DNA of 64,000 nucleotides from Thermothielavioides terrestris NRRL 8126. Lineage: Eukaryota; Ascomycota; Sordariomycetes; Sordariales; Chaetomiaceae. A program made the translations under genes and the position numbers. Location: positions 1,798,001 through 1,862,000 of the forward strand of contig NC_016459.1 in assembly GCF_000226115.1 (NCBI RefSeq), read 5' to 3'. The notes below the pieces were generated by a model, which was not told the origin of the DNA, searched no databases, and saw nothing but the letters and a program-made list of their open reading frames with translations. Every line of letters starts with the position of its first letter. The first letter of the stretch is position 1. Below are positions 13,380 to 52,827 of this stretch, piece after piece.

Positions 13380-16300
13380 TACTAAGTATACAACTATAAC
13401 GCTAAGGCTACTCTACTAGAATACTAATAGTAGTAGGCACCGCCTTAACTAAGCGCTAGAAAAGAAAGAAGAGTTTAACCTAGTAGCGATTTAAAAGCTA
13501 CTAATCCGTCTAACTACAACCTCGCCTACTCTACCCTATAAACAAAGTAAACGGTATAAAATAATATATAGTACTAATAGGGCAGCGCTATATATAAGTA
13601 AACGCCTCGATTATACAATATAGTCTATTAAAGCTAAGGAAGACTAAGCAACAATAACGTTTAAGAAGGAGGGGTTGGACCCCCTTACAATATAGTCTAT
13701 CTACTTACCTAACTAGGAGCTAGGGTAGCAATCGCCGTTCTATGCCCTAGTAGATTAAGAGCCAAGGGGGCGTAATATACTTGTAGACGACTTTAACGCC
13801 TACTACCTAATATAGGATAAGTAAAATAGAACCTCCTAATTAGCGGGTACACTACTCTAGATTACAATAGAGTAGGAGCTTAAGCTCTATATGCCTTATA
13901 ATATACCTACCTAAGTTTAGTAAAGTAATAAAAATAGTATAATCAACTATATCTAGGCAATATAGGGCAGTAGTATCTAATAGCTAGGGCCGCTCGACTT
14001 AGTAGGCTTAGACTATATGCCCTAGATAGCTAAAGTGCTACTAAGAAGGAATAGCAGCAAAGCCGCTATACTACTAGGCTATAGCTAAGCGCTACTTAAC
14101 TATAAGAGGTATAAAGCTAAAGTATAGTTCCTTACCCTACTAAGGGAGATCGATATAGTAGAGTAGCTTAAAGATATAGTAGATACCCTAGTATATAAGC
14201 TAACTAGTATCATAGATATAGCAGTACTACGCTATAAGCTTAACCGGAGGTCCTATATACTATAGTAGAACTTCGAAGTCAATAAGGCAATATAAGAAGC
14301 AAAGAGGGCTAAATGCGCCTAGCGGTCAAGCCGTATAGCAAGCTCCTAAACGTATTACCGTAAAGCAATATAGCGTTTCGAACGCTACGCCTATCAATTG
14401 TAGACACTATACTAGCGCTACTTGCTCGCTAGGGCGTTGAAGGAGCAGAAGCTAATATAGAATATCGAAAGGTAGACGTAGCTTTGTAGCCACTAACGCC
14501 CTAAGCCGCTAGCGCTACCAACGCTCTAGCTAGGACCTAGCGAGCCCTAAAGCGCTATAATATATACTTAAAAGGCGGAGGCGCTAACAGAGCGCTTCTT
14601 CCCTACCCTATAAGCGTAGTACAACAGTATACCTAACCAAGATTAGCCTAAAGAGTCTTTCTATAACACTACGCCTATCAACTAGGAAGTCTATCTATAG
14701 TACTAAAATTATAAAGATTATAAGCTATATAGGATTAAATAAGGTGCTTAGTAAAGACCTTTTTACTAATAAGTTTCTTAAAGCCTATAATAAGGAGAAC
14801 AAGCTATTAGAGATACTTATAGCAATTATATACGCCTATTTCAAGCTAGAGCACTTCCTATATAGATTCTACACTATATAGGTAATCGTCCTTAGGAAAC
14901 TAAGGAAGTCTCTAGAACAGCTAATAGAAGTAGAGATATACTACCTAATATCGCTACTTAGTGCAATAGATAAGATTATTAAGACGGCTATTGTAGACCG
15001 AGTAATATATATAGCTAAGGCGTATAAGCTACTCCTAGAGATATAGATAGGCTTCCAACAGTATAGGTCTATAGAGGTAACAATCTAGATAGTGACTAAT
15101 ATAGTAAAGACGGTATAAGTATATAACGCCTATACTTCGCTATTACAACTAGACTTAAAAGGCGCCTTCGACTAAGTCGACTAAGTCTAGCTACTATATA
15201 TACTCTAGATACTAGGCTTTAAAAGGAAGCTAATTATACTCCTAAAGAGCTACTTCAAGGATTATACAACGCGCCTATAGTTCAATAGGATTATAGCTAA
15301 GCCAACGACCCTATAGCAAGGTACGCTATAGGGTTCGCTACTATCGCCAACGCTATTTATCCTCTTTATCACTCCCTTATTCTATACCTTCAAAGCGTAT
15401 ACTAGGCTCCTAATAGTCGGATATACAAATAATACCAACCTTCTTATATTTAGATAGGATATACTAGTGTACTATCGTATACTAGAGAGAGGGTTTACTA
15501 AGTATAAGAAATAGGCTATAGAACAAGGGATATAGTACAAACTAGCAAAGAGCAAGCTTATCTACTTTACAAAGGCGTAGTAGCTATATATAGAGGTCGT
15601 CAATATCCTTAGCAAAGGTTAGCTAGGACTTATACCTATAGAGTCAACGAGGTTCCTAGGTATATAGCTAGACTATAAGCTCTTATTTTAAGTATATAAG
15701 AAAGCGGTTAAAGCTAAGATAGCTATATAGAAGTTTACCTTTATAAGACTTATAGCGAAGACGTATAAAGTATATATTATATAAGCTTAGGAGATCTATA
15801 CAAAGGTCATTAGGAGCGTCCTTTTATATAAGGCAATAGTATAGTATACTTTAACGCTAATCAGAGGGACTCCCTATAAGATCGTATATAGCTTTAGCGC
15901 AACGTAGTCGGGCTACCTCTAGGTTATTACTAGTATATATAAGGCTACGCCAATCTATAACCTAGAAAGTAAGACCTAGATACCCCCTATCGATTTATAC
16001 CTTAACCGCTAAGCGGCGTATACTAAATAGAGGCTCTAGAAAACTAGGCTTATATAGCTTCTATACAATATCTATATAAAGGTAGCGTTAAAGTTAAAGA
16101 AGTAGCGCTATATACGCTACAACCTAGTAGTAGGGCCAGCTATAAAGGAGTCTCCTATAGAGTAGAGGCAACTATAGGCTAAGGACTAGCTCCTTATACA
16201 CCGCCTAGCGATAGTAGTAGAGGTTTAGGGCAAGAGCGACAAGGACGATAGTTAGAGACCCTAAAAGCTATAGCTATATACTAATGTAGATATAGCTATA

Positions 16301-17060
16301 GTAGAGGAGTAGAAGGTATATAGAGAACTATAGATACGCTATATAGACGTTAGAAGGCTAGAGAGGGCACACTATAGGGAGGCAGTAGACCTATACAACC
16401 TAGAGCCTCCTACCTAAGTGCTATAAGTATATAAGGATCTTAGCAAGGTATAGAGCTCCCTCCTTATATAGACGTACATTAGGGCTATTGGCCTTAGGCA
16501 GTTCCTATTCTAAAAGGGGGTACTAGATATACCTATACCACTCTACCGCTATAGCAAAGCGCTTAAGACTATCGCCTACTTTACAATATACTATAGGGAC
16601 CCTATAGTTGCTATAGGGAGGCCCTATATTAAAGACCAATATATATTATTTATATTACTTAGGAGTAGGAGAGACGCCTAAAGGATTATAGGATAGCTAA
16701 TATACACTAAGCGCCTATAGGAGTACTAGCTAACGCTTAAGCTAAACGTCGAGGGCGAGGTAGGATATAAGAGAGCGGTAGAGAGCGCCACAGGTATATA
16801 GTAGGAGCATAGTAGCTAGGACAGCGTAGTAGAGGAGCCCCTAGCGGCTAGCTATAAGAACTTAGGCATAGGCGAGAGGCGTAGGAGGAGGAGGAAGAGG
16901 TATAGGAAGGTCGGCCTCTAGCTACTCCTCGTAAGTATATAGTACATTTAGCGGCTACGGTACCTACGCTAAGAGCGTATCGTATACGTAAGTAGTATGC
17001 AACGGGCTGTATAGGCCGCTATATCTCTATCGCTACTAGGCTAGAAAAGTAAATTCCAGC
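13380..17060 (+). pseudogene. LINE-b ORF2 (endonuclease, reverse transcriptase)
   Basis: The endonuclease domain begins near 13440 with a frame reading ALYISKRLDYTIQS, followed by the GDFNAHH-type box decayed to DDFNAYY at about 13787-13807. The RT has motif A QLDLKGAFD at about 15146-15172, motif B GSLLSPTLF near 15340, and the catalytic box read as YTNNTN at about 15421-15438 (both Asp to Asn). The C-terminal finger is at about 16540-16600, with the Cys codons now TAC/TAT, then a basic RRRRRKR run near 16880. I see no RNase H motif. Numerous TAG/TAA codons make it non-functional. Confidence 0.85.
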
Positions 17061-17199
17061 GAGTTAGAGAGAGGGAATTGGGGAGGCCTGCCCTACGTAG
17101 CGGGAACGTAGTATAGGCACTACGTATAAGTGGTATATATAGAGGTGGAGGGACCGCTTGCCCTTAGTAGCGAGGCACTAGGTGCCTCTTCAATATAAG

Positions 17200-17229
<30 letters not shown>

Positions 17230-26424: not shown

Positions 26425-26599
26425 ACTACAAAAACTAAAAAGGAGCTTCTTCGTACTTAAACGCCGATTGCGAAAGAACCGTTGAGCTAAAATTGGATCC
26501 GACAACGCAAGCATACTTAGTATACCCGATTACCCCTATCTACGATGTCGTAGAGGGGGCGTAGTAGCTACGTAGGTCGCAGTGGCAATGGCGGTGGTC

Positions 26600-27940
26600 C
26601 GATAGTGGGCGCCACGAGTTGCAACGCTATAGCTAACGTATACGAGCACCCCGACTGACGCAACCGAAGACTTAGGCTCCCTCCTATAGGAGCTACAAAC
26701 GATCGGAATATATATACCAAGGGCGCTAGCAATAAAAGATCAAAGCTTTTATAAGAATTCTACGCCTTAGTATCGCTAGAGATATAGCTATATATATAGG
26801 CTACTATATATATATATTACTGTAAGGTGTTCTAGGACAAGCTAAACTACCTCTACAATATATATAAGCTATATAAAAGCGTCGACTATATAAAAGAGGA
26901 GGTTATATAGATTAAGAACAAGGTTGGGCTATAGGTAGGCGTTAGAGGTATATAGGCGAGGACCTAGGCCTAGGTAGTAGAGCAGGGTATAGCTACGACG
27001 TTGGTGCCCTAGCTACTTAAGAGCTATATACAGTATATACTAAAGAAGCTATTTTATAAGCTTATGATCAACCTTAGGCAAGTACTTGCAGATATTGTCA
27101 ATAGGAGCGTAGAGGATATAGTCTAGGCGGTAAATACGGCTATAGCTACAATAAGAGCGACTATAGGGGGCAGTAGAAGTAGCGTTATCGTAGTATAGAA
27201 GCTACTAAAGAGTGGGAATATAGTAGTTATATTTAAGGAGGATCGCTAGGCGTAGTTCGTTGACGAGGATAACAAAGCGTAGGTTACCGCTATGTTCAAG
27301 GCGACTATAGTGCTTAAACGCTATATATTTACGATACTAGCGAAGGGTATATAGCTAGCCGCTCTAGCGAGGTATAGAGATAACCTTAGCCACCTAGTAG
27401 CAGACCTAGTAAGAGAGAATAAGGTCTAGATCGTATATACAAGGCTATATACGCTATAGGGCAGTATTAAAGGCGATTAGGAGCTATAGACGATATATAT
27501 ATTAGTCGAGCTCTATATAGTTAAGGAAGCTATAAGGCTTATCGATTAGGGTATTCTACTCGACTATATAGTCTACCTTTATAAACGCTTCGAAGGCATA
27601 GTATATACAATCCTATACTTTAAATATAGGAAATAGGGATATAAAGCGGTATTCTATAAAGAGGAGGAGATATACTATCTAGTTTATATCTATATAGCGT
27701 ATAGCGATAGTAGTACTACGAAGGAGCGAGAGGCGCAATGCCTAGTAAAGACTAACCTAGCTAGGCACTAACCGAAGTATATCAACTATAGAGGTGTCTA
27801 TATAGCTTTCGATATAAGCTACAAAGTTGTATAGAAGTAGTATAGGCGTATAAGGGAGCGGTTCCTTGACTACCTACTTACGTTCTACGTGCTTTAACCT
27901 TAGGCAACGGCGATAATGGAGGCGAATATATAGTATAGAA
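26600..27940 (+). pseudogene. LINE-c ORF1
   Basis: Colinear with ORF1 of LINE-a and LINE-b: the NIYTxGASNKRxRLLxEF region lies near 26707-26770, the helical middle follows, and the zinc-knuckle region is at about 27612-27720. RIP-type stops are frequent. It is an RNA-binding protein in the family; non-functional here. Its start is undetermined. Confidence 0.72.
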
Positions 27941-28179
27941 GCTAGAAAGACGAGTTAGGGGAGTAGCGCCTAAGGAAGCGCTCTACTAAGGTAGGCTAGC
28001 CTATCGACATCTAGAGGGTAGGACGCTCCAATGGTATAGACCTATTCTAGTTTAGGGTACTCTTATAAACGTTCTAGAGAGCTAGGGCATAGAACAAAAG
28101 TACTACTTATATAGCGCCCCTATATAATATAAGTATAGAGCTAGCTTTATAGCCTAATGTAGTTATAACTAAGGGCCCC

Positions 28180-30751
28180 TACTCTATATTAAGTATATAG
28201 CTATAACGCTAAGGGTGCTCTACTAGAATACCGATAGTAGTAGACACTGCTTTAACTAGGTATTAGAGGAGAGAGAGGAGTTCGACCTAATAGCGATTTA
28301 AAAGCCGCTAATCCGTCTAACTACGACCTCGCCTACCCTACCCTATAGGCGAGGTAGGCAATATAAGATAATATATAATGTTAGTAGGGCAGTGCTATAT
28401 ATAAGTAAGTGCCTCGACTATACAATGTAGTCTACTAAGGCTAGGGAAGACTAGGTAGCGGTGACGTTTAAGAAGGAGGGGTCGGACCCCCTTACAGTAT
28501 AGTCTATCTACTCGTCTAACTAAGAGCTAGGATAGTAATCGCCGCTCTATGCCCTAGTAGAGCGGGAGCTAAGGGGACGTAAAATACTTATAGGCAACTT
28601 CAATGCCTACTATCTAATATAGGACAAGTACAATAGAACCTCTTAATTAGTATATATACTACTCTAGATTATAGTAGAATAAGAGCTTAAGCTCTATACG
28701 CCTTATAGTATGTCTACTTAGGTTCGATAAGGCAATAGAGATAGTACGATCGACTATATCTAGGCAATGTAAGGTAGTGGTGCCTAGTAGCTAGGGCTAC
28801 TCGACTTAGTAGGCTTAGACTATGTACCTTAGATAGCTAAAGTACTACTAAGGGGGAATAGCGGTAGAGCCGCTATACTACTAGGCTATAGCTAGGCGCT
28901 ACTAGACTATAAGAGGTATAAAGCTAAAGTATAGTTCTTTACTCTACTAAGGGAGGTCAGTATAGTAGAGTAGCTTAAGGATATAGTAGATACTCTAATA
29001 TATAAGTTAACTAGTATTATAGATACGGTAGTACTATGCTATAAGCTTAACTAAGGGTCCTATATATTATAATAGAACTTCGAAGTCAACAAAGTAATAT
29101 AAGAAGCGAGGAGAGCTAAATGTGCCTAGCGATCAAGCTGTATAGCGAGCTCCTAAGTATATTATTGCGAGGTAGTATAGCGTTTTAAGTGTTATACCCA
29201 TTGGTCGTAGACGCTATACTAGTGCTACTCGCTTACTAAGGCGTCAAAGAAGCAGAAGCTAATATAAAATATTAAGAGGTAGGTACAGCTTTATAGCCAC
29301 TAACGCCTAGAGCCGCTAACGCTATTAGTGCTCTAGCTAGGACCTAGTAAGCCCTAGAGCGCTATAACGTATACCTAGAAGGCGGAGACGCTAGTAGAGC
29401 GCTTCTTCTCTACCCTATAGGCGTAGTACAACAATATACCCAACTGAGATTAGCCTAAAGAGTCCTTCTACAATACTACGCCTATCAACTAGGAGGTCTA
29501 TAGTACTAAAATTATAGAGATTATAAGCTATATAGGATTAAACAAGGCGCCTAGCGAAGACCTCTTTATTAACAAGTTCCTTAAAGCCTATAACAAGGAG
29601 AGCAAGTTGTCGAAGGTGCTTATAGCGATTATATACGTCTATTTTAAGCTAGAGCACTTCCTACGTAGATTCTACACTATATAGGTGGTTGTCCTTAGAA
29701 AGCTAAAGAAGTCTCTAGAACAGTTGACGGAGGTAGGGGTGTACCGCCTAATATCGTTGCTTAGTGCAGTAGGCAAGATTATTGAGGTAGCTATTACGGA
29801 CTGAGTGATATATATAGCTAAGGTATATAAGCTACTCCCAGAGATATAGATAGGCTTCTAGCAGTATAGGTCTATAGAGGTGGCAATCTAGGTAGTAATT
29901 AATATAGTAAAAACAGCGTAGGCGTGTAGTGCCTACGCTTTACTATTGCAACTAGACTTAAAGAGCACTTTCGACTAGGTCGACTAGATCTAGCTACTAT
30001 ATACGCTCTAGGAACTAGGCTTTAAGAGAAAGCTGATTATACTTCTAAAAAGCTACTTCGAGGATTGTATAGCGCACCTATAGTTCAATAGGATTATAGC
30101 TAAGCCTATAGCTCTATAGCAAGGTATACTATAGGGCTCGCTACTATCGCTAGCGCTATTTATCCTCTTTATCACCCCCCTGTTCTATACCTTTAAGGCG
30201 TATACTAGGCTTTTAATAGTCGAGTATATAGATAATACTAACCTCCTTACGTTTAGATAGGATATACTAGCGTACTACTATATATTAGAGAGGGGGTTTA
30301 CTAAGTATAAGAAATAGGCTATAGAACGGGGGATACAGTTCGAGCTAGCGAAGAGTAAGCTTATCTACTTTATAAAGGCGTGGCGGCTATATATAGAGAT
30401 CGTTAATATCCTTAGCGAAGGTTAGCTAAGGCTTGTACCTATAGAGTTAGCGAGGTTCCTAAGTATATAGCTAGACTATAAGCTCTTATTTCAAGTATAT
30501 AAAAAGGCGGTTAAAGCTAAGATAGCTATATAAAAGTTTACCTTTATAAGACTTATAGCAAAGACGTATAGGGTATATATTATACAAACTTGGGAGATCT
30601 ATACAAAGGTCATTAGGAACGTCCTTTTATATAGGGCAGTAGCGTAGTATACTCTAATACTAATCGGAGGGACTCCCTATAGGGTTGTATATAGCTTTAG
30701 TGCAACGTAGTCGGGCTACCTCTAGGTAGTTGTTAATACATATAAGGCTAT
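28180..30751 (+). pseudogene. LINE-c ORF2, N-terminal part (endonuclease, RT)
   Basis: The endonuclease domain has ALVERELRGRKILIG followed by the FNAYY box at about 28590-28612. The RT has motif A QLDLKSTFD at about 29948-29974, motif B GSLLSLALF near 30138, and the catalytic box YIDNTN at about 30224-30241. Frame continuity is good, with only TAG/TAA interruptions. The frame is broken at 30751 by element C and resumes at 38014. Confidence 0.85.
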
Positions 30752-31244
30752 TGAAATAGTGCAAAACCTCTATACCAACCTACCCTACTATACCTAGGAT
30801 CAGGCGCGTAAGATAGCTCCTAAAGGAATGCAATGTACTTTTAGACGGATGAAGATAGTGTATATCAAGTAGTAGGAAGGATGTTTCCTAAGAGGAAGAC
30901 ACGTAGCTCAGATACGTCTAGTAGGATATAGTAGAAAGACAAAAGACAATAAGAATATAGTCAGAGCTCAATAGCTCGAATGCCTATCGTCTAGATAGAG
31001 GTAGAACAACGAAAGGAGAGGCTTAACAGCCTTCCTAGAAGAAGGAGGACCATTAACGTAGTGTCAACGAACGTATATTAACAACTACTTAATGTCTTGC
31101 TTAATAACGAAGAAGATAGGCTTAGCCCATTTAAATATATATAATTAGAGGGCTAGACCCCCTAGCAACGAATGTAATATACTAAAATAAATAGAAAAAA
31201 AAACTGGGTCCCTATATCTAGGTAGTCTATTACCCTAATTTATA
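30752..31244 (-). repeat. Element C LTR, left (3' LTR in coding sense)
   Basis: 493 bp starting TGAAATAGTG and ending AATTTATA (AATTCACA in the right copy). It is colinear with 37521-38013 without indels; differences are transitions of RIP type. Read on the minus strand it follows the purine-rich GAAAGGGAAG (31245-31254), as expected for a polypurine tract. Confidence 0.93.
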
Positions 31245-32579
31245 CTTCCCTTTCAAGCTTACTATATACTCCTATAGGCAAGCTTATACCTTAAAAGCTC
31301 CTTAGTATACGTCTCTTATCGTTGCTACTCCTTAAGCTACTCTCTATATATAGCTCTCTCGGTTTACGAAGGTCTAGCTAGCTATAGTAGCTGATTATAT
31401 CGTCTTTTATACTCCTCTACTTCCTTAATATACACGTCCTATCTTTGCTATTATACCGGATATTTATACTTATAGGCGAAGGCGTAGTCGTATAGGTTAT
31501 ATAGAGGTAGGCGAAGTAGACGTCTAGGCTTCGTAGGCTCCTTATAAGGGCGTTTACTACGGTGCTATACTAAAGGTAACATTTAGCTAGATGACATAGG
31601 TGATCTATATGCCTAAAGATACTTCTATACTAGCGTATAAGGCATCTTAAGGTAGTCTAGCCTCCTTATAAGCGTATAGATAAGCGTCTCCTTTTCCTAG
31701 AGGTAGGGATCGAGTACTATCTTCTTAAGGGCTACCTATACTAGTGCCCTAAGGTCTTTAACTAGGTCGCTACCGAAAAGGTGCTCTTAGTCTATCTTGT
31801 CTATAGGGATATCAATAAATTTTTATATCGTAGTCGCTTATAGTATAGTAATCTCTATAATCTTAGCTTCAATATCCCACTAGGTTGATATATTGTTAAG
31901 ATCTTCTATAAATGCTATTAATGGACCTAAAGTAGCTTGCTAGTCCTCTAGTTGGAGGAGTAGAACAGTGCTAGGTACTAGGAATATACTCTATAGCTAT
32001 CGTCCAAGGCTATTTACAAGGTCTTATAAAGGCGGTACACTACTTAACTGTCTATCTAGTAGGAGTCCTACGACTCTACAGTAGTATATTTAGTAGGCTA
32101 TATCCTTCTTTAACTAGGATATAAAGATAATTTAGGCAATAGTAATTACTCCTTTCTTACTCCAGTTAAAGAGCTAGGCTTCCTTAAATGCCACTAAGTA
32201 TATAGCTAGGATCCTAAGTTCTATATCGCTAAAGTGGTCGTAGAGACACGTAGATAGGTTATCGAGTCTAAGAACATCGGATATAAATACATTGTCGGCC
32301 TAGAGGACTTCGATCACCTTATCTTCATTGTACTCCGAGACTATAAGCTATATAGGCTCTTTGGTTAGAGATAGTAGGTCTAGAGGGAGCTTATACGTCT
32401 TACTATTGTCCTATAGTAGTAAGGGGACTACCTTAACGCGAAGTAGACAATCCTTAAAGGTACTAAGAGCTAGCCTACAAGTTCCTAACTATAAGTACAA
32501 TATATACTACTATACAACTATCTCACTATCTCCCTAGTATAGCCGAAGCTAGGGCAGCCTAAACTATATTTATCTATCT

Positions 32580-33160
32580 AGAAGGTAGGGCTCGAGTTCT
32601 TAAAGAAAGGCCTATATAAACTCAAAGGCGAACTATCTATACTCCTATTTTAAACTTTGCCAAGGGCAGTGGACAATAACCTCCTTATACAGCTACGTCT
32701 AAAGGAACCTATAGACAGACTAAAAGGCGATCTAGACCTCTAACAAGATATCGATATACGTCTCTAAGCTCTTAAATAGAGAGTTGAAGTAATAGAGCCG
32801 ACCTCTAACTTAATCGAAGATCGCAACTACCCAATACCTTCCGTCAACGAAGCAAAGGAAAACCTAGAAACGGCAATTGTTAGTAATAACCCTCTGGTCA
32901 GACTAGTAGAACTCCTTTGGTATAGGACTATAGTCTGAGACTAGCTATAGGTAGATCTAGAGATAGCCCTTGTAAAGGCGAAAGAAAAACTATATAACGT
33001 CTAAGATTGTCCTATAATCTAGCTATTCCTTACTAAGTAATATACCTTCTATATCGAAGAGCGAAATACCTATATCTATAAAACAGATATTAAAAAACTG
33101 ATTTATTAGGGACCTTCCCTCTAGCTAGTCTAGGAATAGGTACTTTACAATCTTAGGGTT
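32580..33160 (-). pseudogene. Ulp1/C48-type cysteine protease domain within element C
   Basis: The minus-strand frame shows the C48 order His-Asp-Gln-Cys. The first block is DGRYWVVAIFD at 32845-32813, where RYW is HW-like after C-to-T. It is followed by RLYYFNSL at about 32800-32777 (NSL from DSL). The next block is CPWQSLK with the oxyanion Gln, then E-Y-R-stop-F at 32644-32630; G-to-A changes explain this as ECGWF, placing the catalytic Cys. After it comes FAFEFI-x-AFL, as usual in this family. C48 enzymes cleave SUMO/ubiquitin-like conjugates and are known as cargo of some DNA transposons. Here both the context and the substrate are unknown. Confidence 0.75.
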
Positions 33161-35359
33161 CGTACTAAGCTAAAGGCTTAGGATCTAGTCGAGTCATTAG
33201 TTAATTATATCTTATAGGTACTTCTTTAAAGTCTATAAAAATAGGAAAAGCTTAAGGCTAGTCTTACCTAGGTAGCCTAGTATCTTTAAGCCTAGCTCTT
33301 ACTATATAAGGGAGGTGTAATACTACGTTTAATCGCTATTGCTAGCAAGCCTCCGCAAACCCTATAGTATATAAAACTTGAGCTCTCTAAGTAGCTGCTT
33401 CTATCCTAGGTTGATAGTTATATCGGCCTAGGGCTATATAGGCTCTATGAAATTAGGAATCCTACGACAGCCTATAGCGATGTTTACGATAGCGTATAAA
33501 AAATTGGCTTATAAGAAAAGTCGCTCTCTAGGCAGAAAGATCTAGACTAATTAAAACAATCGTAAGAAAAATCAGAGCGTAATAGGCAAGGTAGAAGAAA
33601 TAGTTGATCGTAAGCGAACTAGTAGGAGAATTAAGAAAAAGGGGTAGGCAAGCCTTTAAAGGCAAGAGGGCTACTTAGCTCTTTCTTAAACTAGGCAAAA
33701 GAAAATAGATAAGGCTTGTAGCGCCTACTAATTAGCTAGAAATGAGCATTCGCCCTCTGAATTCTTAAGGCCTTCCTCTTCTCTTTACTATCCTAGAACC
33801 ATTTTCTTCCTCCAACCTTCTCGCTACTTTATTCTAATACCCTTCTCTCTCTAGTTGGTAAGAAAACCGTTTATAGTGGCGAGCATTTCTCGAAGGCGCT
33901 CCTTAGTAAGTCTTGAGCCTAGCTTAAGATCTAAGAAACAAAGGACTATAAGGTCTTCCTAGTCCTTCTCGAACTACATTTTAGCTTTAGCCTTTGTAAG
34001 CTGCTTTTCTCACTATAATGGGTCTCCCTCTAGCGTAGAGCTATCCGATAGTACCAAGTCGATAGGCTAAACCTTGTTTACAATATTCTTCTAGAGTATA
34101 AATGTCCTCAAGGCCTCCCTAAACTTATAGTAGAACGCCTACCTTAGCTTTCTATTGGAAAAGGGGTTTCCAATCGGGGTCCCCCTCTTCTAGAGCAGGG
34201 TATAGATACAATCGTCAACGTCTCTAGGTAGACCCTTACGAATCCAACGCTCCTAGAGGCTTCCTATATAGATGCCCTATACACTATCCTTAGTAACTCT
34301 AAAGATTACTAGAACTGTCTCGGTCTAACTAGAGGAAGAGTCGTCAAGCGTATTTATATTAGTATATAGAGCCTATACGTAGACCCCTATATCTTTTAGT
34401 ATAGTGGTCGGTCTATTAGGCTTAGGAACACTGGACCCCTTATAGTCAATGACCTTGACGTCGATAGAAATGCTCTATAGATATACGATTAAAGCGTCTT
34501 TATACTTAGGCGAGATATAGACTAAGTTATTAAAGGTTAGACTAGTCTTCGCCTTCATTGTAGTATAGATCGTATCCTTTATATATAAAGGCAATATAGC
34601 AACCTTTAGCGTAGGCGGCTTAGACTATAGCTTCTCTTTCTTTATACAATTCGCTATAGCTAGGTTCTTAAAGATAGTTATATAAGGAGGCTCTACTAGA
34701 GGTACAAAAGTACTACCTATCTAGAAGTTATCTTCCCTTTCGTCTTTAGCGAACCGACGCTTAGTAGACGGTATACCTTGAAATATAGTCTCCGCTTCCT
34801 CGTCCACTTCCTTCTTAGCTTCCCCCTTAGTCTAGTTAAAGAGAGGAAGAGGTAGTCAGCGAAATTCGTTAGCTTTTAATATAGGCTATAGGACAACCTT
34901 CTAAGTTAAGATATAACCTTCTTCTAATAGAACTATATAAAACGACAACTAATTAGACGCTATATAATAGAAGGCGGAGATAAGCTTAGGCTCCCCTTTG
35001 TATATAAGACAATTGATCGTTACCTAGATAGTCGTAGGCTCCTAATATAGTTTAGGCTACTAGAGGTAGTGCTTGTTTAGTACTAGGGATATATCTAGCT
35101 TAAATAGGCGACTATTTAAGCGCTTATACTTACAATAGTACGCCTAATATATAGGGTAGCTGTTATACTATAGGCAATAGGCTACGTATACGAGGACAAG
35201 CTAGCTAATCTTACCGACCTCTTATACATTATCAACATCTACTTTTGTAAAAGTGATCGTCTCGGCTAGCGTATAGCCCTTCTTGCTCTTATCGCCAAGG
35301 CAATAGTCTATACCTTTACGATATATTAGACCTATAGCTATAGCTTTTATAGCTTCTAT

Positions 35360-35401
35360 ATACTTAAGGACTATATAGTCAAAGTTACTACAATAGTAGC
35401 A
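35360..35401 (-). other. Zinc knuckle of element C
   Basis: Fourteen codons reading CYYCSNFDYIVLKY. With TAT as decayed CAT/TGT, this is CX2CX4HX4C. Such knuckles are typical of retroelement gag nucleocapsids and suggest an RNA-packaging role, though cellular nucleic-acid-binding proteins also carry them. Confidence 0.75.
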
Positions 35402-37520
35402 ATAGCTAGAGCTTATAGGTCTACTATAGCTAAAAGGACAACTATCAATATATAGGCTAGCAACAAAGCTAACGCGTCTCTCCTATAAACGGCTCTACTA
35501 CTAGAAATACGTCTAGAGAACCTCGATCTTATTAGGAGTAGGATCGATTCTATATAAACAGAGGGCTTTGATCTTCCGTTCGAACTATTTAGCGATCTTC
35601 TACTTCTAGATATATAGACGCTAGAGCTAATTAGCTAAATCATCGATATCGTCGAGCGTAGGTATAAGAGCTTTCTTTAGCTCCTCCTCTTCCTATTCCT
35701 ATAGCTTAGGGATCGTCTTAATAGTAGGCGTAGCTAGAGGTAAGTAGTACTTCTATAGATTGATCTTATACTTATAGGTCTTAAGAAAGAGGTCTCCTAC
35801 ATTGAGACCCTTCTAAAGAGTATCCTAAACGAACTTAAGGAAGTCTACCCACTTCGTAGTACAAATAGAGTCTTTGTCGTCCTTCTTTAGGGTACGCTAG
35901 CGGTCCTTAAGAGCTACCTAGATCTACTAATTAAGTGTACACTATATAGTTAGAACGATTATATACTATAGCTCTTTACGAACTTTAGTAGAGGCGACAA
36001 TGTATATATAGTCGATCAACTTAAAGTGGTTATAGATAACCTTATCGACTAGCTAGTATCTCCCTTCGATCAGATTATAAAGGTAACCTCTATCTCTATA
36101 CTACTTAGGATCGTTGCCCTTCTAACGCTTTAAGAACTTAGCTTTGAAAGCTACCTAAGTCTCTTAGTCCTTTTTCTCCTAGTGACAGATAATAGGCTAG
36201 ATCGTAGTATTATACCAAAGCTCAAACAGATATATATAGGTCTTGTCATTAGTAACCTAATAAGCCTTGTATATCTCTTCGAAGGTCTTAATCCAACGTG
36301 TAGTATTCTAACTAGAGAAGTGGCCCTAAAGGCTAGCCTTCGCTAAGGTTGGAAAGGTCGTACTAAGCGTAACAATAAAAATGTATTTAGTTATCTTCTT
36401 TAGAGCTTCGGCTTCGGAGAGACTAGAAGGTATTACCGTAGATGCCTCTATATAGATAGGCGAAGTAGAGGTATCTAGCGAAAATAGAAGAGGTATCTAC
36501 GCTACTTTAGCTAAGTCTTCTTCGCTTAGTATACTTTAGAAAGGCTATAAGATAGATACGTCCTTAGACTCTCCTTCGGAGGTTAATATCAAGATTAATA
36601 GTGTTGTAGAGGTTGATAGAATTCCTAGAGCTTCTATAGACAGTGTATATATATATCGCTAGAGTCTAGTTATTAGACGCTTAGCTATTATCTTCGAGAA
36701 AGGCAACGACTATATCGATAAACTATAAAAAGACTGATATATACACTTCTATAGGAATATTAACTCCTTTAACGTCTATCTAGAGGAAGAAAACCTCTTA
36801 AGAAGCTAGGTTCCTTTAGAATATATAGTCTAAACGCCCTGAAGGATAACTATAGGTTCCTTATAGATCACCTAGATACCCCTAGCAACTAATATACTAG
36901 ACCTAACTAGTGTAATAGTAGTAAGAGTATAGCTTTTAAGAAGAAAAGTAAAAGTCTATACTAAAACCTTATATCCAATATAAAATAGTGCTAGATATAC
37001 TATTAGAAGGAGCTAAGTGTCGTAAAAGTGTAGTCCCGAGCTTGGAAGCTTATAAATAGCTACTACGTTTAACTACTTTTGTGACTAGTTCAGCTAGACT
37101 AAGGAAGAAAATGATAATCGATAAAAATTCTACCCCTATCTCTACTTAGGAGGATAGAACTATTATCTTTCGATTAGGTTAGTATTTTACGACTACTACG
37201 TCGATAATAACGAAGCCTTAATAGGTCTTCGAAGTGTTAGAGATAATAGGATATCTTTTTAATGCCCTACGCCGTCTAGGCAAAGGAAGGTCTCCTAGGA
37301 CAAGGTCTCAACAGACCCTTAGAATATATACGCCTCAATAGGTTTCTATACCTCCCGGAGATGCCGATATTAGTATATCGGAGCCTCAACAAGTCGGCTA
37401 TATCGTCGTCGTATAGCTATTAATATAGTATTATATAGTTCTACGATCTTAGAAGACTTTGTAGTCTATACTATCCTATTTAGATATAGAGCTAAGCTCC
37501 TCCCCGATTAAGCCCCTATT

Positions 37521-38013
37521 TGAAATAGTGCAAAACCTCTATACTAACCTACTCTACTACACCTAGGATTAGGTATATAAGATAGCTCCTAAAGGAATAT
37601 AGTATACCTTTGGACGAATAAAGATAGTGTATATCAAGTAGTAGGAAGGATATCTCCTAAGAGGAAGACATATAGCTTAGGTGCATCTAGTGGGATATAG
37701 TAGAAAGACAAAAGACAATAAGAATACGGTTAGAGCTCAATAGCTCGAATGCCTACCGTCTAGACAGAGGTAGAACAACGAAAGGAGAGGCTCAACAGCC
37801 TTCCTAGAAGAAGGAGGACCACCAACGTAGTGTCAACGAACGTATATTGACAACTGCTTGATGTCTTGCTTGATGACGAAGAAGATGGGCTCAGCCTACT
37901 TAAATATATGTGATTAGAGGGCCAGACCCCCTAGCAACGAATGCAACGTGCTAAAACAAATAGAAAAAAAAACTAGGTCCCTATGTCTAGGCAGTCTATC
38001 ACCCTAATTCACA
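37521..38013 (-). repeat. Element C LTR, right (5' LTR in coding sense)
   Basis: 493 bp from TGAAATAGTG to AATTCACA. Less RIP-mutated than the left copy, particularly at 37840-38010. It is followed by ATACTAGTC, the continuation of LINE-c. The left flank ends GGCTAT and uninterrupted LINEs read GGCTATACTAG, so only AT is shared. Confidence 0.93.
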
Positions 38014-39150
38014 ATACTAGTCTATAACTTAGAAAGTGAGACCTAGATACCCTCTATCGATCTATACCTTAACCGCTAGGCGGTATATACCAAATAGAGG
38101 CTTTAGAAAACTAGGCTTATATAGCTTTTATACAATATCTATACAAAGGTAGCGTTAAAGTTAAAGAAGTAGCGCTATATACACTATACCCTAGTGGCGA
38201 GACTAGCTAAAGGGGAGTCTCCTATAGAGCAAAGGCAACTATAGGCTAAGGACTAGCTCCTTATACACTGTCTAGCAGTAGTAGCGAAGGCGTAGGACGA
38301 GAGCGACAAAGACAACGATTAGAGGCCCTAGGAGCTATAGCTATATACTAACGTGGATATAGCTATAGTAGAGGAGTAGAAGGTACATAGAGAGATATAG
38401 ATATACTATATAGACACTAAAAGGCTAGAGAGGGCGTACTATAAGGAAGTGGCAAACCTATATAACTTAGAGCCTCCTATCTAAGTGCTATAGGTATATA
38501 AAGGTCTTAGCAAGGTATAGAGCTCCCTCCTTATATAGGCGCGTATTAGGGCTATTGGCCTTAGGCAGTTCCTATTCTAGAAAGGGGTGCTAGATACACC
38601 TATACCACTCTACTGCTATAGCGAGGTACCTAAGACCGTTGCCCACCTTACGATACGCTATAAAGACCCTATAATTACTATAGAAAGGCCCTATATCTAA
38701 GACCGATATACGCTACTTATACTACTTAGAAATAGGAGAGACGCCTAAAGGATTATAGGATAGCTGATATACACTAGGCGTCTATAGGAGTACCGGCTAG
38801 CGTTCGAACTAAATGTCGAGGGCGAGGTAGGATATAAAGGAGCGGTAGAGAGCGCTATAGGTATATAGTAGAAGCGTGGCAGCTAGGATAGCGCGGCAAA
38901 GGAGCCTCTAGCAGCTAGCTATAAGAACTCGAGCGTAGGCGAGAGGCGTAAGAAAAGGAGGAGGAGGCGTAGAAAGGTCGGCCTCTAGCCGCTCCTCACG
39001 AATATACGGCGCGCCTAGCGGCTATAGTACCTACGCTAAGAGCGCATCGTATATATAAGTGGCGTACAACGGGCTATATAGGCCGCTATACTATGTCTCC
39101 GTCGCCACTAGGCCGGAAAGGTGAGTTCTAGCGAGTTGGAGAGAAGGAAT
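38014..39150 (+). pseudogene. LINE-c ORF2, C-terminal part
   Basis: Resumes the ORF2 frame after element C with a region matching KTQIPPIDLYLN of LINE-b. It continues through the Cys/His finger (about 38605-38670, Cys codons mostly TAT/TAC) to the basic tail near 38950. The 3' untranslated end with both stem-loops follows at about 39155-39270. Confidence 0.85.
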
Positions 39151-39281
39151 TAGGGAGGCCCGCCCTGTGTAGTGGGAACGCAGTGTAGGCGTTGCGCGTG
39201 AGTAGTGTATATAGAGGTGGAGGGACCGCTTGCCCTTAGTGGCGAGGCATTAAGTGCCTCTTCGGCGTAAGATTAATAATA

Positions 39282-41371
39282 ATATATAAACTACTCTATA
39301 AAGACTAACAACTTAGACAAATACAACTACCTAGGCGTAAAGAAACTATAATACGTCTAAGTCTAGTTATCCTCTTAAAACTAAATAGAATATAGTTATA
39401 TATAAAAAGACAATAAGACGTATAAATAGCGCTACCTACTCTAGCTCTATAACAGGTCCTATATTTAGTAGGTCCTCCTCTTTATCCTTAAATAGGTATA
39501 TAGGCGAGGCGGGTAATATAGGGGTAGAATAGGTATACGAGGGGTGTGGGGCGGGGGTAGTATATACGCTTGATAGGCGTATAAGACGTCCTCTATAGAG
39601 GAGGATAGGCGTCGTCTATAGTGTAGGTCGTAGAGGGACGCGCGTATATAGGGTGAGTAGTAGGGGCGGAACCCTTAAAGGGTGTAGATAGGCGAGGGGG
39701 AGGTAAGCGTAATAACGTACTTTACGAAGTATAAATTCGTCTTAAGGACGGTTGCTTAAGACTACGCTATAATATAGATAGCCTCCGTGATACGCTAATT
39801 CTCCTACTAGGAGGAATTGAAATATTACACTATATACTCAACAAGGCGACTATAGTATTATATAGCGAGATTGTTCTAAGGAGCCTAGTATAGAACTAGG
39901 GCTCCTCGCTAGGTTAGGGTCGAAGGTGTAGAGGAGGTGACTAGGGGCGCGTTGGAGGCGAAGGCGAAGTATGCTAGGGATCGGTGTATAAGGGCTATAC
40001 TAATCGCGCTATAGAAGCTATATATAAAAGCGATAAATAGCGCCTTTAAAATAGTATAGCGGGCTAGCTTAGTTTTAGTTTTTTTACAAATAGGCTCTAC
40101 AATAGCTTTATTGTCGACGTGGAATTTAATTAGGCGTTTTAAGCTAGTATATAGAGAGGGATTAGTCGCCTAGAGTACTAAATCCTAGTAGCACTTAGTA
40201 TACAACTTAGTATACTCTATATAGCTCTCTTTATATCTTTAGACGTATTTGACGAAGTTACTATATATAAGCTGCTCAACGTAGTTTAGGTAGATATCCT
40301 CTTCCTCTTTAGGAAGAGCGTTATCCTCGTTATCTAAGTTGCCTTTAACAATGTAGCCGCCAATAGCGTAGCAAGAGGAGTTGTTACGATTGTTGCGGTT
40401 TTGTCTAAAATACTATTAGCTTCTAGCCTAGGGCTAAAGTAAGCTCAATAAGGGATAACGTACATTGCGGTCCTAGTTGTCGTCTCCTTTAGGACAACGT
40501 CCTTCTCTATTACCGTTGAGCGAAGCGACTATAGCCGATATTCTAGAGAATATAGATAAGAACGAAGTAGATAAGTTTTAAGGATATATCGCTATTACAA
40601 AGAGAATAGAAAGCTGCTAAGGAGGTTAGAGCAAATAGACAAGATATATATAGGATATATATATAAAGGAAATGGCGGGAAGCCGAGTATAGATAAGGAG
40701 AAAGAGTTGTAAAAACAAACTAGGTATATAGCGAATTCTTGTTAGGTTCGTATTAAAGTTGAAGTGATAGCGTTGTAGATATAGAACGATTATATAAAAA
40801 AAAAACAACGAATATTGCCGATAGGGCGTAAAACGAATGTACAACGAAAATAGTATAGGCGACGTAGGTGTTACTATATATAAGAAGGTTGAGAAATAGG
40901 TATAAGATAGAGACAAGGTAGGAAGAGCCAACGTATAGAGAGGATGAAGGATAGGAATACAAAGGAGGAATAGGGGCGCGCAGTGGAAGCGAGAAGAAAA
41001 TGTAGGGTACAAAGTTCGTAGGGGAGGAGGGGGTTTTAATAGTATAAGAAAGGGCTAGGTCGTATATAATTAATAGGTATACCTAGTACGACGTAGTTGC
41101 GATATATAAACGTACGAAGCGGGGAAAGGCCAATTAGCAACTAGCTAGGGCGATATAAATAAACAACTTGAGCCTAGGCAATAGGACGACTATAGGTAGC
41201 AAGGCCTTAGTAGGCAACTACGCTAGGCTACCCTAATAACAAGGCAGGCGCTATATAACCTAGCAGTAGGTGCTAGCGTCTATCACGACTAGCGCTATAC
41301 TAGACCTAAACTACGCTCGATATAGCGTTATATATACTCTAATTTAACTGTCTAACGGGGTAGGGGGGGTA
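39282..41371. other. GyB 3' region between pol and 3' LTR
   Basis: About 2.1 kb of GyB after the chromodomain, not matching GyA or the LINE. It includes a G-rich stretch at 39500-39700 and ends in the polypurine tract GGGGTAGGGGGGG (about 41357-41369) directly before the LTR. An antisense reading frame (separate entry) covers much of it. I recognise no domain on the plus strand. Confidence 0.7.
39480..41012 (-). pseudogene. Possible antisense ORF in the GyB 3' region
   Basis: One minus-strand frame starting at an ATG at 41012 is open for 128 codons (to 40626) and then continues to about 39480 with only TAG/TAA interruptions. It totals about 510 codons with no TGA. Readable stretches include NNRNNSSCYAIGGYIVKGN near 40400, NEDNALPKEEEDIYLNYVEQ near 40330 and LIKFHVDNKAIVEPICKKTK near 40135. 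The N-terminal part is rich in Leu, Ser, Tyr and Phe. Some Gypsy elements carry an extra antisense gene at this position. TGA is rare throughout RIP-mutated DNA, so its absence is weak evidence, and I recognise no family. Confidence 0.4.
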
Positions 41372-48943: not shown

Positions 48944-48948
48944 CCTAT

Positions 48949-51900
48949 ATAGCCCGTTACACGCCATTTATATATGTGATACGCTCCTAGTGTAGGTACC
49001 GTAGCTACTAAGCGCGCTATATACTTGCGAAAAGCAGCTAGAGGCCGACCTTTCTATACCTTTTCCTCCTCTTCTTATACCTCTCGCCTATACCTAAGTT
49101 CTCGTAGCTAGCTATTAGAGGCTCCTCTACTACACTATCCTAGCTACTATACTCCTATTGTATACCTATAGCGCTCTTTACCGTTCCCTTATATCCTACC
49201 TCGCCCTTTATATTTAGTTTAAACACTAGCCAATACTCCTATAGGTACCTAGTATATATTAGCTATCCTATAATCCTTTAGGCGCCTCTCCTACTCTTAA
49301 GTAATATAAGTAGCGTATATTAGTCTCGGAAATAGGGCCTTCCTATAGCAACTGTAGGGTCCTTATAGCGTATTGCAAGGTGGGCGACAGTTTTAAATAC
49401 TTTGCTATAGCGGTAGAGCAGCGTAGATATATCTAGTACCCCCTTCTAGAATAGGAACTGCCTAAGGCCAATGGCCCTAGTATATACCTATATAAGAAGA
49501 GAGCTCTATACTTTATTAAGATCTTTATATACCTATAGTACCTAGGTAGGAAGCTCTAAGTTATATAGGTCTACTACTTCCCTATAGCACGCCCTTTCTA
49601 GCCTCCTAGCGTCTATATAGCGTATCTATATCTCTCTATATACCTTCTACTCCTCTACTATAGCCGTATCTACGTTAATATATAGCTATAGCTCCTAGGG
49701 TCTCTAATCGTCGTCCTTGTCGCTCTTGTTCTACGCCTCTACTACTATCGCTAGGTAGCGTATAAGGAGCTAGTCCTTAGCCTACAGTTACCTCTATTCT
49801 ATAGAAGACTCCCTTGTAGCTAGTCCTGCTACTAAGGCGTAGTATATATAGCGCTACTTCTTTAACCTTGACGCCACCTTCGTATAGATATTATATAGAA
49901 GTTGTATAAGCTTAGTTTTCTAGAGCCTTTGTTTAGTATATACCGCCTAGCGGTTAAGGTATAGATCGATAGGGGGTACCTAGGTTTTACTTTCTAGGTT
50001 ATAGACTAGTATAACCTTGTATATGCTAGTAACTACCTAAAGGTAGCCCAACTATATTACGCTAAAGTTATATATAATTCTATAGTGAGTCCCTCCAATC
50101 GACATTAGAGTATACTACGCTATTGCCCTATATAAAAGGACGCTTCTAATGACCTTTGTATAGATCTCTCAAGCTTATACAATATATACCCTATACGTCT
50201 TCGCTACGAGCCTTGTAAAGGTGAACTTCTATATAGCTATCTTAGCCTCAACCGCCTTCTTATACGCTTAAAACAAGAGCTTACAGTCTAGCTATACGCC
50301 TAGGAACCTCGCTAACTCTATAGGTATAAGTCCTAGCTAACCTTTGCTAAGGATATTAACGATCTCTATATATAGCCGCTATACTCTTATAAAGTAGATA
50401 AGCTCGCTCTTCGCTAGTTTGAACTATATCCCTCGTTCTATAGCCTATTTCTCGTATTTAGTAAACCTTCTCTCTAGTATATAGTAATACGCTAGTATAT
50501 TCTATCTAAACGTAAGAAGGTTAGTATTATCTATATATTTAACTATTAAGAGCCTAATATACACTTCAAAAATATAGAATAGAGGGGTAATAAAGAGGAT
50601 AAATAGTACTAGCGATAATAGCGAGCCCTATAGTGTACCTTGCTATAGAGTCGTAGGCTTAGCTATAATCCTATTAAACTATAGGCGTGCTATACGATCC
50701 TCGAAGTAGCTCTTCAAAAGTATAATCAGCTTCCTCTCGAAGCCTAGTTCTTAGAGCGTATATAGTAGCTAGATCTAGTCGACCTAATCAAAGGCGCCTT
50801 TCAAGTCTAGTTACAATAGCAAAGCGTAGGCGCTATATATCTATACCGTCTTTACCGCATTAGTCACCACCTAGATTGCTACCTCTATAGACCTATACTA
50901 CTAGAAGCCTATCTACATCTCTAGGAGCAGCTTATACGCCTTAGCTATATATATTACCTAGTCTACAATAGCCGCCTCGATAATTTTACCTATCGTACTA
51001 AACAACAATATTAGGTAGTACACCCCTACCTCCGTCAACTATTCTAGAGACTTCCCTAGCTTCCTAAGGACAACTACCTATATAGTGTAAAATCTATATA
51101 GGAAGTGCTCTAGCTTAAAACAAGTGTATATAATCGCTATAAGTATCTCTAACAGCTTACCCTCCTTATTATAGGCCTTAAGAAACTTATTAGTAAAGAG
51201 CTCTTCGCTAAGCGCCTTATTTAATCCTATATAGCTTATAATCTCTATAATTTCAGTACTATAGACCTCCTAGTTGATAGGTATAGTATTATAAAAAGAC
51301 CTTTTAGGCTAGTCTTAGTCGGAGATACTATTGTACTACGTCTATAGTATAGGAAAAAAGCGCTCTACTAGCGCCTTAGCCTTCTAGGCGTATATCACTA
51401 TGCTCTAGGGCTCGCTAGGCCCTAGCTAGAGCGCTAGCAACGCTAGAGGTTCAAGGCGTTAGTAGCTTCGAAGTCGTACCTACCTCTCGATATCCTATAT
51501 TAGCTTCTACTCTCTCGACGCTCTAGCGAGAGAGTAGCGCCAATATAGCGTCTATAACCGCCTAACGTAGCGTTTAAACCACTATACTACCTCACAGTAG
51601 TACGCTTAGGAGCTCGCTATACAACTCGATCGCTAAGCGCGCTTAGCCTTCTTCGCTTCCTATATCGCCTTGTCAACTTCGAGGTTCTACTACAGTATAT
51701 AGGATCCCCAATTAAGCTTCTAGCGTAGCGCTACTATATCTTTAATACTAGCTAGCTTATATATTAGAGTATCTACTATATCTTTAAGCTACTCTACTAT
51801 ATTAACCTCCCTAAGTAGGGTAAGGAACTACGCCTTAGCTTTGTACCTCTTATAGTCTAATAGCGCCTAGCTATAGCCTAGCGGCGTAGCAGCTCTGCCA

Positions 51901-52600
51901 CTACTCCCCCTTAGCGGCACTTTAGCTATCTAGGGTATATAGTCCGAGCCTACTAAGTCGAATAGCCCTAGCTATCAAGTACCATTGCCCTACGTTGCTT
52001 AGATATAGTCGATTATACTATCTTTATTACTCTATTGAACCTAGGTAAGTGTACTACGAGGTATATAGAGCTCAAGCTCCTATTCTATTACAATCCAAAG
52101 TAGTATACCCACTAATTAGGAGGTTCTATTATACCTGTCCTATATTGGGTAGTAGGCGTTAAAGTCGTCTATAAGTACATTACGCCCTTTTAGCTCCTAC
52201 TCTACTAGGGTATAGAGCGGCGAACGCTACCCTAGCTCCTAGTTAGGCAAGTAGATAGACTATACTATAAGGGGGTCCGACCCCTCCTTCTTAAACGTTA
52301 TCGCCACCTAGTCTTCCCTAGCCTTAGTAGACTATATTATATAGTCGAGGCGCTTACTTATATATAGTGCCACCTTGCTAACGCTATATATTATCTTATA
52401 CCGCTTGCCTCGCCTATAGGGTAGAGTAGGCAAGGTCGTAGTTAGATAGATCGGTAGCTCTTAAATCGCTACTAAGTCGAACTCCTCTCTCCCTTCTAAC
52501 GTCTAATTAAAGCGGTGTCTACTACTATCGGTATTCTAGTAGAGTACCTTTAGCGTTATAGCTATATACTTAGTATAGAATAGGGGCCTTTAGTTATAAC
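48949..52600 (-). pseudogene. LINE-d ORF2 (endonuclease, RT)
   Basis: Minus-strand ORF2. The basic tail is near 49050 and the decayed Cys/His finger near 49370-49420. The RT catalytic box (FADDT-type, now with Asn) is at about 50521-50545, and motif A (LDLKGAFD) at about 50777-50815. The endonuclease GDFNA box, read as DDFNAYY, is at about 52150-52172. RIP-type stops are common; no RNase H was recognised. Confidence 0.83.
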
Positions 52601-52827
52601 TACATTAGGCTATAAGGCTAGCTTTATACTCGTATTATATAGAAGCGTTATATAAGCGGCGTTCCCATTTTATACTCTAGCTCCCTAGAACGTTTATAAG
52701 AGTATTCTAAACTAGAATAGGTCTATACTGTTAGAGCGCCCTACCCTCTAGATATTAGTAGGCTAGCCTACCTTAGCTAGGCACTTCCTTAGGCGCTACT
52801 CTCCTAACTCGCCTTCTTAGTTTCTAC

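What the first reader, a model, noticed from the sequence alone, without database searches (positions are those of the whole stretch)
30752..38013. LTR element whose only long gene joins a gag-type zinc knuckle to an Ulp1/C48 protease
Perfectly matched 493-bp TG...CA direct repeats enclose one minus-strand frame of about 2,090 codons. It contains a knuckle (35360-35401) and a C48 His-Asp-Gln-Cys series (32845-32630) in the same frame. I could not find RT, RNase H, integrase or transposase motifs. C48 proteases are known as cargo of some plant and fungal DNA transposons; with gag-like sequence between LTRs, this arrangement is unfamiliar to me. It could be a non-autonomous retroelement that uses GyA/GyB enzymes, with the protease acting on SUMO-dependent silencing or on particle maturation (speculative).
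Basis: partly seen in the sequence, partly recalled or inferred. Interest (0 to 1): 0.9.

Follow-up and report, generated by a model that had tools for sequence, protein, structure and literature searches.

The report
Deleted Gypsy retrotransposon with protease ORF
The element is one dead, internally deleted copy of a large fungal Gypsy retrotransposon whose other copies do carry reverse transcriptase and integrase; the real curiosity is that the family also carries a separate gene resembling a SUMO-cutting protease.

Summary
The LTR element (30752-38013, minus strand) is real, and this copy lacks reverse transcriptase (RT) and integrase (IN). It is not a special gag-protease element. Of 32 other loci that keep the C48 region, 0 share its junction at ~33854; they run on into DNA absent from the window, up to ~5 kb where the locus reaches far enough. 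Another ~0.74 kb is missing at ~34190; 0 of 39 other scored matches are continuous there. In seven relatives the extra DNA encodes Ty3/Gypsy RT-RNase H-IN. The family is thus a ~13-kb Gypsy retrotransposon; 62 of 81 C48-region matches have a family RT upstream on the same strand. The '2,090-codon gene' has 171 stops, and its continuity is an accident of the deletions. The LTRs are 88.6% identical, not perfect; all 56 differences are transitions. The C48 domain is probably real but lies in its own ~750-codon ORF between IN and the 3' LTR. Its support is the H-17-D-42-Q-6-C geometry (0 of 12,000 shuffles); profile searches gave no significant hit. Ten literature searches showed no Gypsy family with a C48-like third ORF. 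New variant of a known kind.

The parts
30752..31244 (-). 3' LTR (493 bp)
   Evidence: 437/493 identical to the other LTR, all 56 differences transitions; LTR-like copies: 41 matches listed, 40 of 248 candidates scored
31245..31257 (-). purine-rich tract next to the 3' LTR (polypurine tract candidate)
   Evidence: sequence read
31303..33566 (-). remnant of a separate third ORF (about 750 codons) with the C48-like domain
   Evidence: reading frame kept in 7 of the 10 loci whose indels were listed; a 1-nt indel at ~33566 sets 4 of 4 listed group-B loci apart from group A just upstream. Limits are approximate, projected from L043.
32639..32836 (-). C48-like catalytic tetrad: H position 32834-32836, D 32783-32785, Q 32657-32659, C 32639-32641
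   Evidence: codon counts in 33 copies; geometry test on 32 copies
33850..33858 (-). deletion junction 1: about 5 kb (RT-RNase H-IN and what follows) missing relative to relatives; 5-bp microhomology CTAGA
33855..34186 (-). short piece of the pol frame upstream of RT, left between the two deletions
   Evidence: L059 and L053 alignments
34187..34190 (-). deletion junction 2: about 0.74 kb missing; 4-bp microhomology GAAG; the missing piece holds a LIDS-type aspartic-protease-like motif (by eye)
34191..37520 (-). gag and start of pol frame, RIP-mutated
   Evidence: 39 other scored matches at 85-89% identity over up to 2.5 kb of it
35360..35401 (-). CCHC-type zinc-knuckle remnant (C-x2-C-x4-Y-x4-Y in this copy)
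   Evidence: 7 copies compared
37521..38013 (-). 5' LTR (493 bp)

Best explanation
The finding is one dead copy of an otherwise autonomous ~13-kb Ty3/Gypsy LTR retrotransposon family in a RIP-active ascomycete, Thermothielavioides terrestris. Full-length relatives are ordered 5' LTR - gag (CCHC knuckle) - pol (aspartic-protease-like, RT, RNase H, H2C2/DDE integrase) - a separate third ORF with a C48 (Ulp1)-like cysteine-protease domain - 3' LTR. Shown: the element boundaries, the LTRs, the two deletions in this copy, the pol domains in relatives, and the linkage of RT and C48 region in most family copies. Inferred: members moved by ordinary LTR retrotransposition with their own pol. The window copy lost two internal pieces at 4-5-bp microhomologies (template switching during reverse transcription, or later deletion) and was RIP-mutated like its relatives. 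The apparent gag-C48 fusion follows from the deletion and was never a conserved gene. Most likely role of the third ORF (inferred, weakly): a SUMO or ubiquitin-like deconjugase acting in trans on host factors that limit the element.
For: LTRs and transitions-only divergence. Nested insertion with a clean empty site. All 19 loci of the closest group (L027-L045) leave the window sequence at 33855-33858 and continue for the ~1 kb held into DNA that matches the extra piece of L053. All 13 of the next group (L046-L058) leave at 33853-33854; in the 7 that reach far enough the window sequence resumes after 4.9-5.1 kb. All 39 other scored matches break at the second site. Eight copies have the same distance, 7,690-7,694 bp, from the piece upstream of RT to a listed 3' LTR. 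The extra DNA in 7 copies: RT_RNaseH_2 and RT_RNaseH in 7 of 7, Integrase_H2C2 in 4 of 7, RVT_1 in 4 of 7, rve in 1 of 7, ordered RT 37-123, RNase H 247-362, H2C2 512-566, rve 582-673; best solved relative is Ty3 Gag-Pol 7q5b, E 1.9e-25. Linkage: 62 of 81 C48-region matches have a family RT on the same strand within 9 kb upstream, 56 of them at 5.1-6.0 kb; the window copy is one of the 19 without. C48: tetrad spacing H-17-D-42-Q-6-C equals that of the host Ulp1 protein P0002 (counted from the sequence printed); the column pattern H-W-x15-D-x(20-80)-Q-x5-C occurs once in six frames of about 1,400 codons over 32 copies, in this frame, and in 0 of 12,000 shuffles. The rare codon at Cys (TGT in 2 of 33) is the one RIP would turn into the common TAT. 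hhalign lines all four catalytic columns up with host Ulp1, E 0.018 in a single comparison, best of six frames.
Against: C48 identity by profile is weak. No Pfam hit at E <= 1 in 25 of 25 copies scanned and no solved-structure hit at E <= 10, while the equally RIP-damaged pol of the same family is detected. hhalign probability is only 2-2.5%, and one of 23 control comparisons scored higher. A RIP-tolerant profile test was matched by 38 of 200 column shuffles in the same frame and 84 of 200 in any frame. No third-codon-position excess of transversions within C48 (9, 4, 4 between the two main groups). No intact homologue: none of 4,141 candidates at E <= 10 and none of the 7,999 scored at E <= 1. 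Three of ten loci listed carry frameshifts inside the ORF. Target-site duplication: at most 2 bp (AT), not the usual 4-6. Twenty-four of 86 RT matches have no C48 match downstream. No single uninterrupted 13-kb copy was read end to end; the full-length layout is pieced together from overlapping loci and match coordinates.
Confidence: 0.85

Rival explanations
1. One reading: a non-autonomous retroelement family whose gene is a gag-C48 fusion, mobilised by other Gypsy elements.
For: The window copy lacks RT/IN, and gag and C48 lie in the same minus-strand phase. Pol-less short forms of the family exist.
Against: No other examined locus shares the junctions (0 of 32; 0 of 39). The frame has 171 stops. 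The two main groups differ by 1 nt just upstream of the C48 ORF. Relatives encode pol. The three short forms with equal spacing lack the C48 region (one of the three was read, the other two by coordinates only).
Confidence: 0.04
2. The short form arose by retrotransposition of a spliced subgenomic RNA (pol and protease removed as introns), so the junctions would be splice junctions.
For: Two clean internal removals in one copy, one of them taking out pol, as splicing does for some LTR elements (copia gag RNA, recalled).
Against: No placement of either junction gives GT...AG at the ends of the missing piece; both sit on 4-5-bp direct repeats (read by eye).
Confidence: 0.04
3. The long forms are the derived ones: a pol-bearing insertion entered a short gag-C48 ancestor.
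For: A 5-bp overlap at junction 1 could be read as a target-site duplication.
Against: The 5-kb piece continues the pol frame that begins on the gag side and holds RT-RNase H-IN in Ty3/Gypsy order. Every other examined locus that keeps the C48 region next to 33854 (32 of 32) continues into it. A second unrelated insertion would be needed at junction 2.
Confidence: 0.03
4. The third ORF is not a C48 protease; the four residues are a coincidence in an unrelated element protein (env-like or of unknown function).
For: No significant profile match; a single-sequence fold of the window piece was uninformative (mean pLDDT 39.6).
Against: Exact tetrad spacing as in host Ulp1, 0 of 12,000 shuffles, and the same columns aligned by hhalign.
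Confidence: 0.2

Closest known systems
Ty3/Gypsy LTR retrotransposons (Metaviridae)
   Same: TG...CA LTRs, gag with a knuckle like CCHC, RT-RNase H-integrase order; best solved relative is the Ty3 Gag-Pol structure 7q5b.
   Different: An extra ORF of about 750 codons between integrase and 3' LTR with a C48-like domain; length about 13 kb; the window copy has lost pol.
Ginger1 DNA transposons (PMC2836005, passages read)
   Same: Link a Gypsy-type integrase with a C-terminal Ulp1 (pfam02902) domain.
   Different: Cut-and-paste DNA transposons with terminal inverted repeats, reported from animals; here the element has LTRs and RT, and the C48 ORF appears separate from pol.
Cryptons with C48 peptidase, CryptonF/CryptonS of oomycetes (PMC3212892, passages read)
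   Same: A mobile element carrying an Ulp1-related C48 peptidase as an accessory gene.
   Different: Tyrosine-recombinase elements, no LTRs, no gag or RT (recalled).
LTR retrotransposons with acquired third ORFs, e.g. bdelloid Vesta/Juno (PMC5408684, passages read)
   Same: An extra ORF3 with an enzymatic domain.
   Different: The passages name GDSL esterase/lipase and DEDDy-exonuclease proteins, not C48.
Non-autonomous LTR derivatives (LARD/TRIM and gag-only elements; recalled)
   Same: An LTR-bounded copy without pol.
   Different: Those are amplified families with shared structure; the window copy's junctions were found in no other examined copy.

Membership tests
Ty3/Gypsy LTR retrotransposon | Paired LTRs with TG...CA ends | tested here: met
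   493-bp LTRs, 437/493 identical
Ty3/Gypsy LTR retrotransposon | pol order RT-RNase H-integrase | tested here: met
   In relatives only, not in the window copy: RVT_1, RNase H, H2C2, rve in that order (rve in 1 of 7 copies at E 0.041)
Ty3/Gypsy LTR retrotransposon | gag with CCHC knuckle | tested here: inconclusive
   C-x2-C/Y-x4-Y-x4-Y/C in 7 copies, consistent with a RIP-mutated CCHC; no Pfam hit for the gag piece of the window
Ty3/Gypsy LTR retrotransposon | 4-6-bp target-site duplication | tested here: not met
   at most 2 bp (AT) on comparison with three uninterrupted target copies; one damaged copy only
Peptidase C48 (Ulp1) | His-Asp-Gln-Cys tetrad with Ulp1 spacing | tested here: met
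   H-17-D-42-Q-6-C; codons across 33 copies; 0 of 12,000 shuffles. Met by comparison of copies; no single copy keeps all four (0 of 33).
Peptidase C48 (Ulp1) | Profile match over cut-off | tested here: not met
   0 of 25 copies at E <= 1; RIP damage may explain it, but pol of the same family is detected
Peptidase C48 (Ulp1) | C48 fold | tested here: inconclusive
   single-sequence model of the window piece, mean pLDDT 39.6
Peptidase C48 (Ulp1) | Cleavage of SUMO or ubiquitin-like conjugates | not testable with these tools
   no copy without stops among the family matches listed
Non-autonomous LTR element family | Several copies share the window's pol-less, C48-keeping structure | tested here: not met
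   0 of 32 loci and 0 of 39 scored matches. A different pol-less form without C48 has three copies with equal spacing.

The most novel reading that the evidence does not exclude
An abundant Ty3/Gypsy lineage in a fungus acquired and kept a separate Ulp1/C48-type protease ORF in the env position, retained through divergence of its subfamilies to about 52-60% protein identity (RIP damage included), and used it against SUMO-dependent silencing or another host control. Such a protease would then be shared by LTR retrotransposons, Ginger, Mutator and Crypton elements.
Probability: 0.3. Interest if true: 0.65.

Novelty: new variant of a known kind. Interest (0 to 1): 0.38.

Why it matters
The claimed RT-less gag-protease element dissolves on comparison with other copies, a caution for reading single RIP-damaged copies. 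What remains is a high-copy Gypsy family with a C48-like third ORF. If intact relatives confirm it, LTR retrotransposons join the unrelated mobile elements that carry SUMO/ubiquitin-like proteases, which would make it testable whether deconjugation helps transposons against fungal silencing.

Tried and rejected
Single-copy Pfam scans of the window pieces: nothing. In one search two of the three window pieces were out of the C48 phase; one search repeated most of them in phase, and 33404-33853 was not scanned in that phase. Profile of the C48 region against solved structures and Pfam on 25 copies (24 loci plus the window): nothing. Homologue searches with the third ORF, one copy and then 12 copies: nothing. 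A RIP-tolerant profile scan per copy, then averaged over copies: not better than shuffled profiles. Codon-phase test for selection: no signal in C48 and none between the two main groups anywhere; a weak signal downstream of C48 against the divergent copies (p 0.011 and 0.040), while an LTR control on three sites gave p 0.0498. Splicing as the origin of the junctions was considered and rejected. Structure prediction of the window piece: uninformative, so no fold search was made. Ten literature searches: nothing in the listings or the passages read shows a Gypsy LTR element with C48/Ulp1. Four of the six papers that hold all the words were not opened. The library is open-access only, and Repbase could not be searched. 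Papers read in passages only: PMC2836005, PMC3248453, PMC3212892, PMC5408684, PMC6338049, PMC7264820, PMC8146201; all others seen in listings only.
Full report
What was claimed and what is there. The element boundaries are right: 493-bp LTRs at 30752-31244 and 37521-38013, inserted cleanly into another repeat whose uninterrupted copies lie elsewhere in the window. The LTRs are not perfectly matched: 437 of 493 positions agree and all 56 differences are transitions. The whole window has a RIP-like composition (TA/AT 1.84, (CA+TG)/(AC+GT) 0.37). The minus-strand frame of 2,091 codons holds 171 stops, its longest open run is 86 codons, and one plus-strand frame has fewer stops (152). No ORF of 100 aa or more overlaps 29000-40000.

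Where it comes from. The genome has 36.9 Mb in six contigs. A host SUMO-protease gene in it is 100% identical, over the 239-residue region searched, to a 1163-aa protein named Thermothielavioides terrestris. It is a thermophilic saprotroph (recalled).

The copy is internally deleted. Twenty loci carrying the C48 region were fetched (L026-L045). L026 is the window itself; the other 19 match it at 85-88% from the LTR to 33855-33858 and then depart. Beyond that point they match the extra DNA of L053 for the ~1 kb held. Thirteen more distant loci (L046-L058, about 82%) depart at 33853-33854; in the 7 that reach far enough the window sequence resumes 4.9-5.1 kb further on. One of the 13, L057, lacks about 4 kb of the extra piece itself. 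A search with 33700-36700 listed 39 other large matches: 38 begin at window 34187 and one later. Thirty-six smaller matches end at 34189-34190, with 743 bp between the two halves in the relative read (L059). The window copy therefore lacks about 5 kb and about 0.74 kb. Both junctions sit on short direct repeats (CTAGA, GAAG), and no placement gives GT...AG ends (read by eye). One search scored 40 of 184 candidates, so other copies with these junctions cannot be excluded outright.

Full-length and short forms. Eight copies have 7,690-7,694 bp between the piece upstream of RT and a listed 3' LTR, one consistent full-length layout. Short forms also exist: L012, L013 and L014 join the 3' end directly to about 34050-34111, without C48 or RT. 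The copy of L014 and two others (C2:8844376, C4:1887957) have the same 706-708-bp spacing, so a pol-less, C48-less derivative may have been amplified (two of the three by coordinates only). The window's form, without pol but with C48, was found only once.

What is missing. The extra piece of seven relatives, stops read as X, gives RT_RNaseH_2 and RT_RNaseH in 7 of 7 (best 1.3e-11 and 2.1e-11), Integrase_H2C2 in 4 of 7 (2.5e-8), RVT_1 in 4 of 7 (3.2e-6) and rve in 1 of 7 (0.041), in Ty3/Gypsy order. The best solved relative is Ty3 Gag-Pol, E 1.9e-25. The 0.74-kb piece contains a LIDS-type motif like that of retroviral aspartic proteases in the same frame (by eye); two of the three minus frames of L059 gave no Pfam hit. 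Genome-wide, 62 of 81 C48-region matches have a family RT on the same strand within 9 kb upstream, 56 of them 5.1-6.0 kb away; 24 of 86 RT matches have no C48 match downstream. So RT plus C48 region is the usual layout and the window copy an exception. Of the 91 rows, all have stops inside except one at E 0.35, so no intact copy was seen in this genome.

The C48 ORF. Compared with the L043 copy, indels between 1335 and 3590 (window ~33566 to ~31310) are multiples of three, or compensated within 9 nt, in 7 of the 10 loci whose indels were listed. L021, L046 and L061 carry single-base shifts. A 1-nt indel at L043 1327-1334 is present in 4 of 4 listed loci of the second group and absent from the one listed locus of the first. 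I therefore take the C48 region as a separate ORF beginning downstream of the deletion, and the gag-to-C48 continuity as fortuitous.

Is it C48? For: across 33 copies the four positions read CAT 22/TAT 11, GAC 28/AAC 5, CAA 22/TAA 11 and TGT 2/TAT 31, each pair in the direction RIP takes; no copy keeps all four. The spacing H-17-D-42-Q-6-C is that of the host's own Ulp1 (counted from the sequence). The column pattern with Trp after His occurs once in six frames and in 0 of 12,000 shuffles; without the Trp 17-31 of 2,000 shuffles per frame match. The pattern was chosen after seeing the site. hhalign aligns all four columns to host Ulp1 at E 0.018, best of six frames. Against: no Pfam or solved-structure hit, hhalign probability 2-2.5% with one of 23 controls scoring higher, a RIP-tolerant profile test matched by 38 of 200 shuffles, no third-position signal in the domain, no homologue found, and an uninformative fold. 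I put the C48 assignment at about 0.75.

Comparison with what is known. C48/Ulp1 domains are described in Ginger1 and in Mutator elements (PMC2836005) and in oomycete Cryptons (PMC3212892). Extra enzymatic ORFs are described in bdelloid LTR elements (PMC5408684), and additional ORFs in plant LTR elements (PMC7264820, abstract). Nothing in the listings or passages from ten searches shows a Gypsy LTR element with C48.

Verdict. As written, the finding is an artefact of one deleted, RIP-damaged copy. The family behind it, a Ty3/Gypsy element with a probable C48-like third ORF, is a new variant of a known kind and moderately interesting.

Noticed in passing
L014 (C1:2961387), and G000 C2:8844376-8845748, C4:1887957-1889322: Three short forms of the family have the same 706-708-bp spacing between the 3' LTR and window position ~34050, lacking C48 and RT: perhaps an amplified non-autonomous derivative. 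L012 and L013 have other deletions of the same kind.
   Followed up: partly
L002 (C1:6053870-6057418) and L003 (C6:2166009-2169557): Two 3,549-bp stretches with an open host Ulp1-type SUMO protease frame are letter-for-letter identical, odd in a genome with strong RIP: a very recent duplication or an assembly duplication.
   Followed up: partly
L049 (C3:1892500-1902000) and L050 (C1:3386000-3395500): 9,253 bp are 100% identical in inverted orientation, RIP mutations included: duplication after RIP, or an assembly artefact.
   Followed up: partly
G000 C1:2629896, C2:5103840, C3:579255, C5:3244110, C5:4280392: Five equal-scoring RT matches lie in open frames of 1,324 codons without stops, about 24% identical to this family's RT: apparently a young Gypsy-type family not yet hit by RIP.
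   Followed up: no
26437-30751 and 38014-39289: The element interrupts another repeat whose uninterrupted copies lie at 2436-7976, 11636-17216 and 48944-53937; at most a 2-bp target duplication (AT) is visible.
   Followed up: partly
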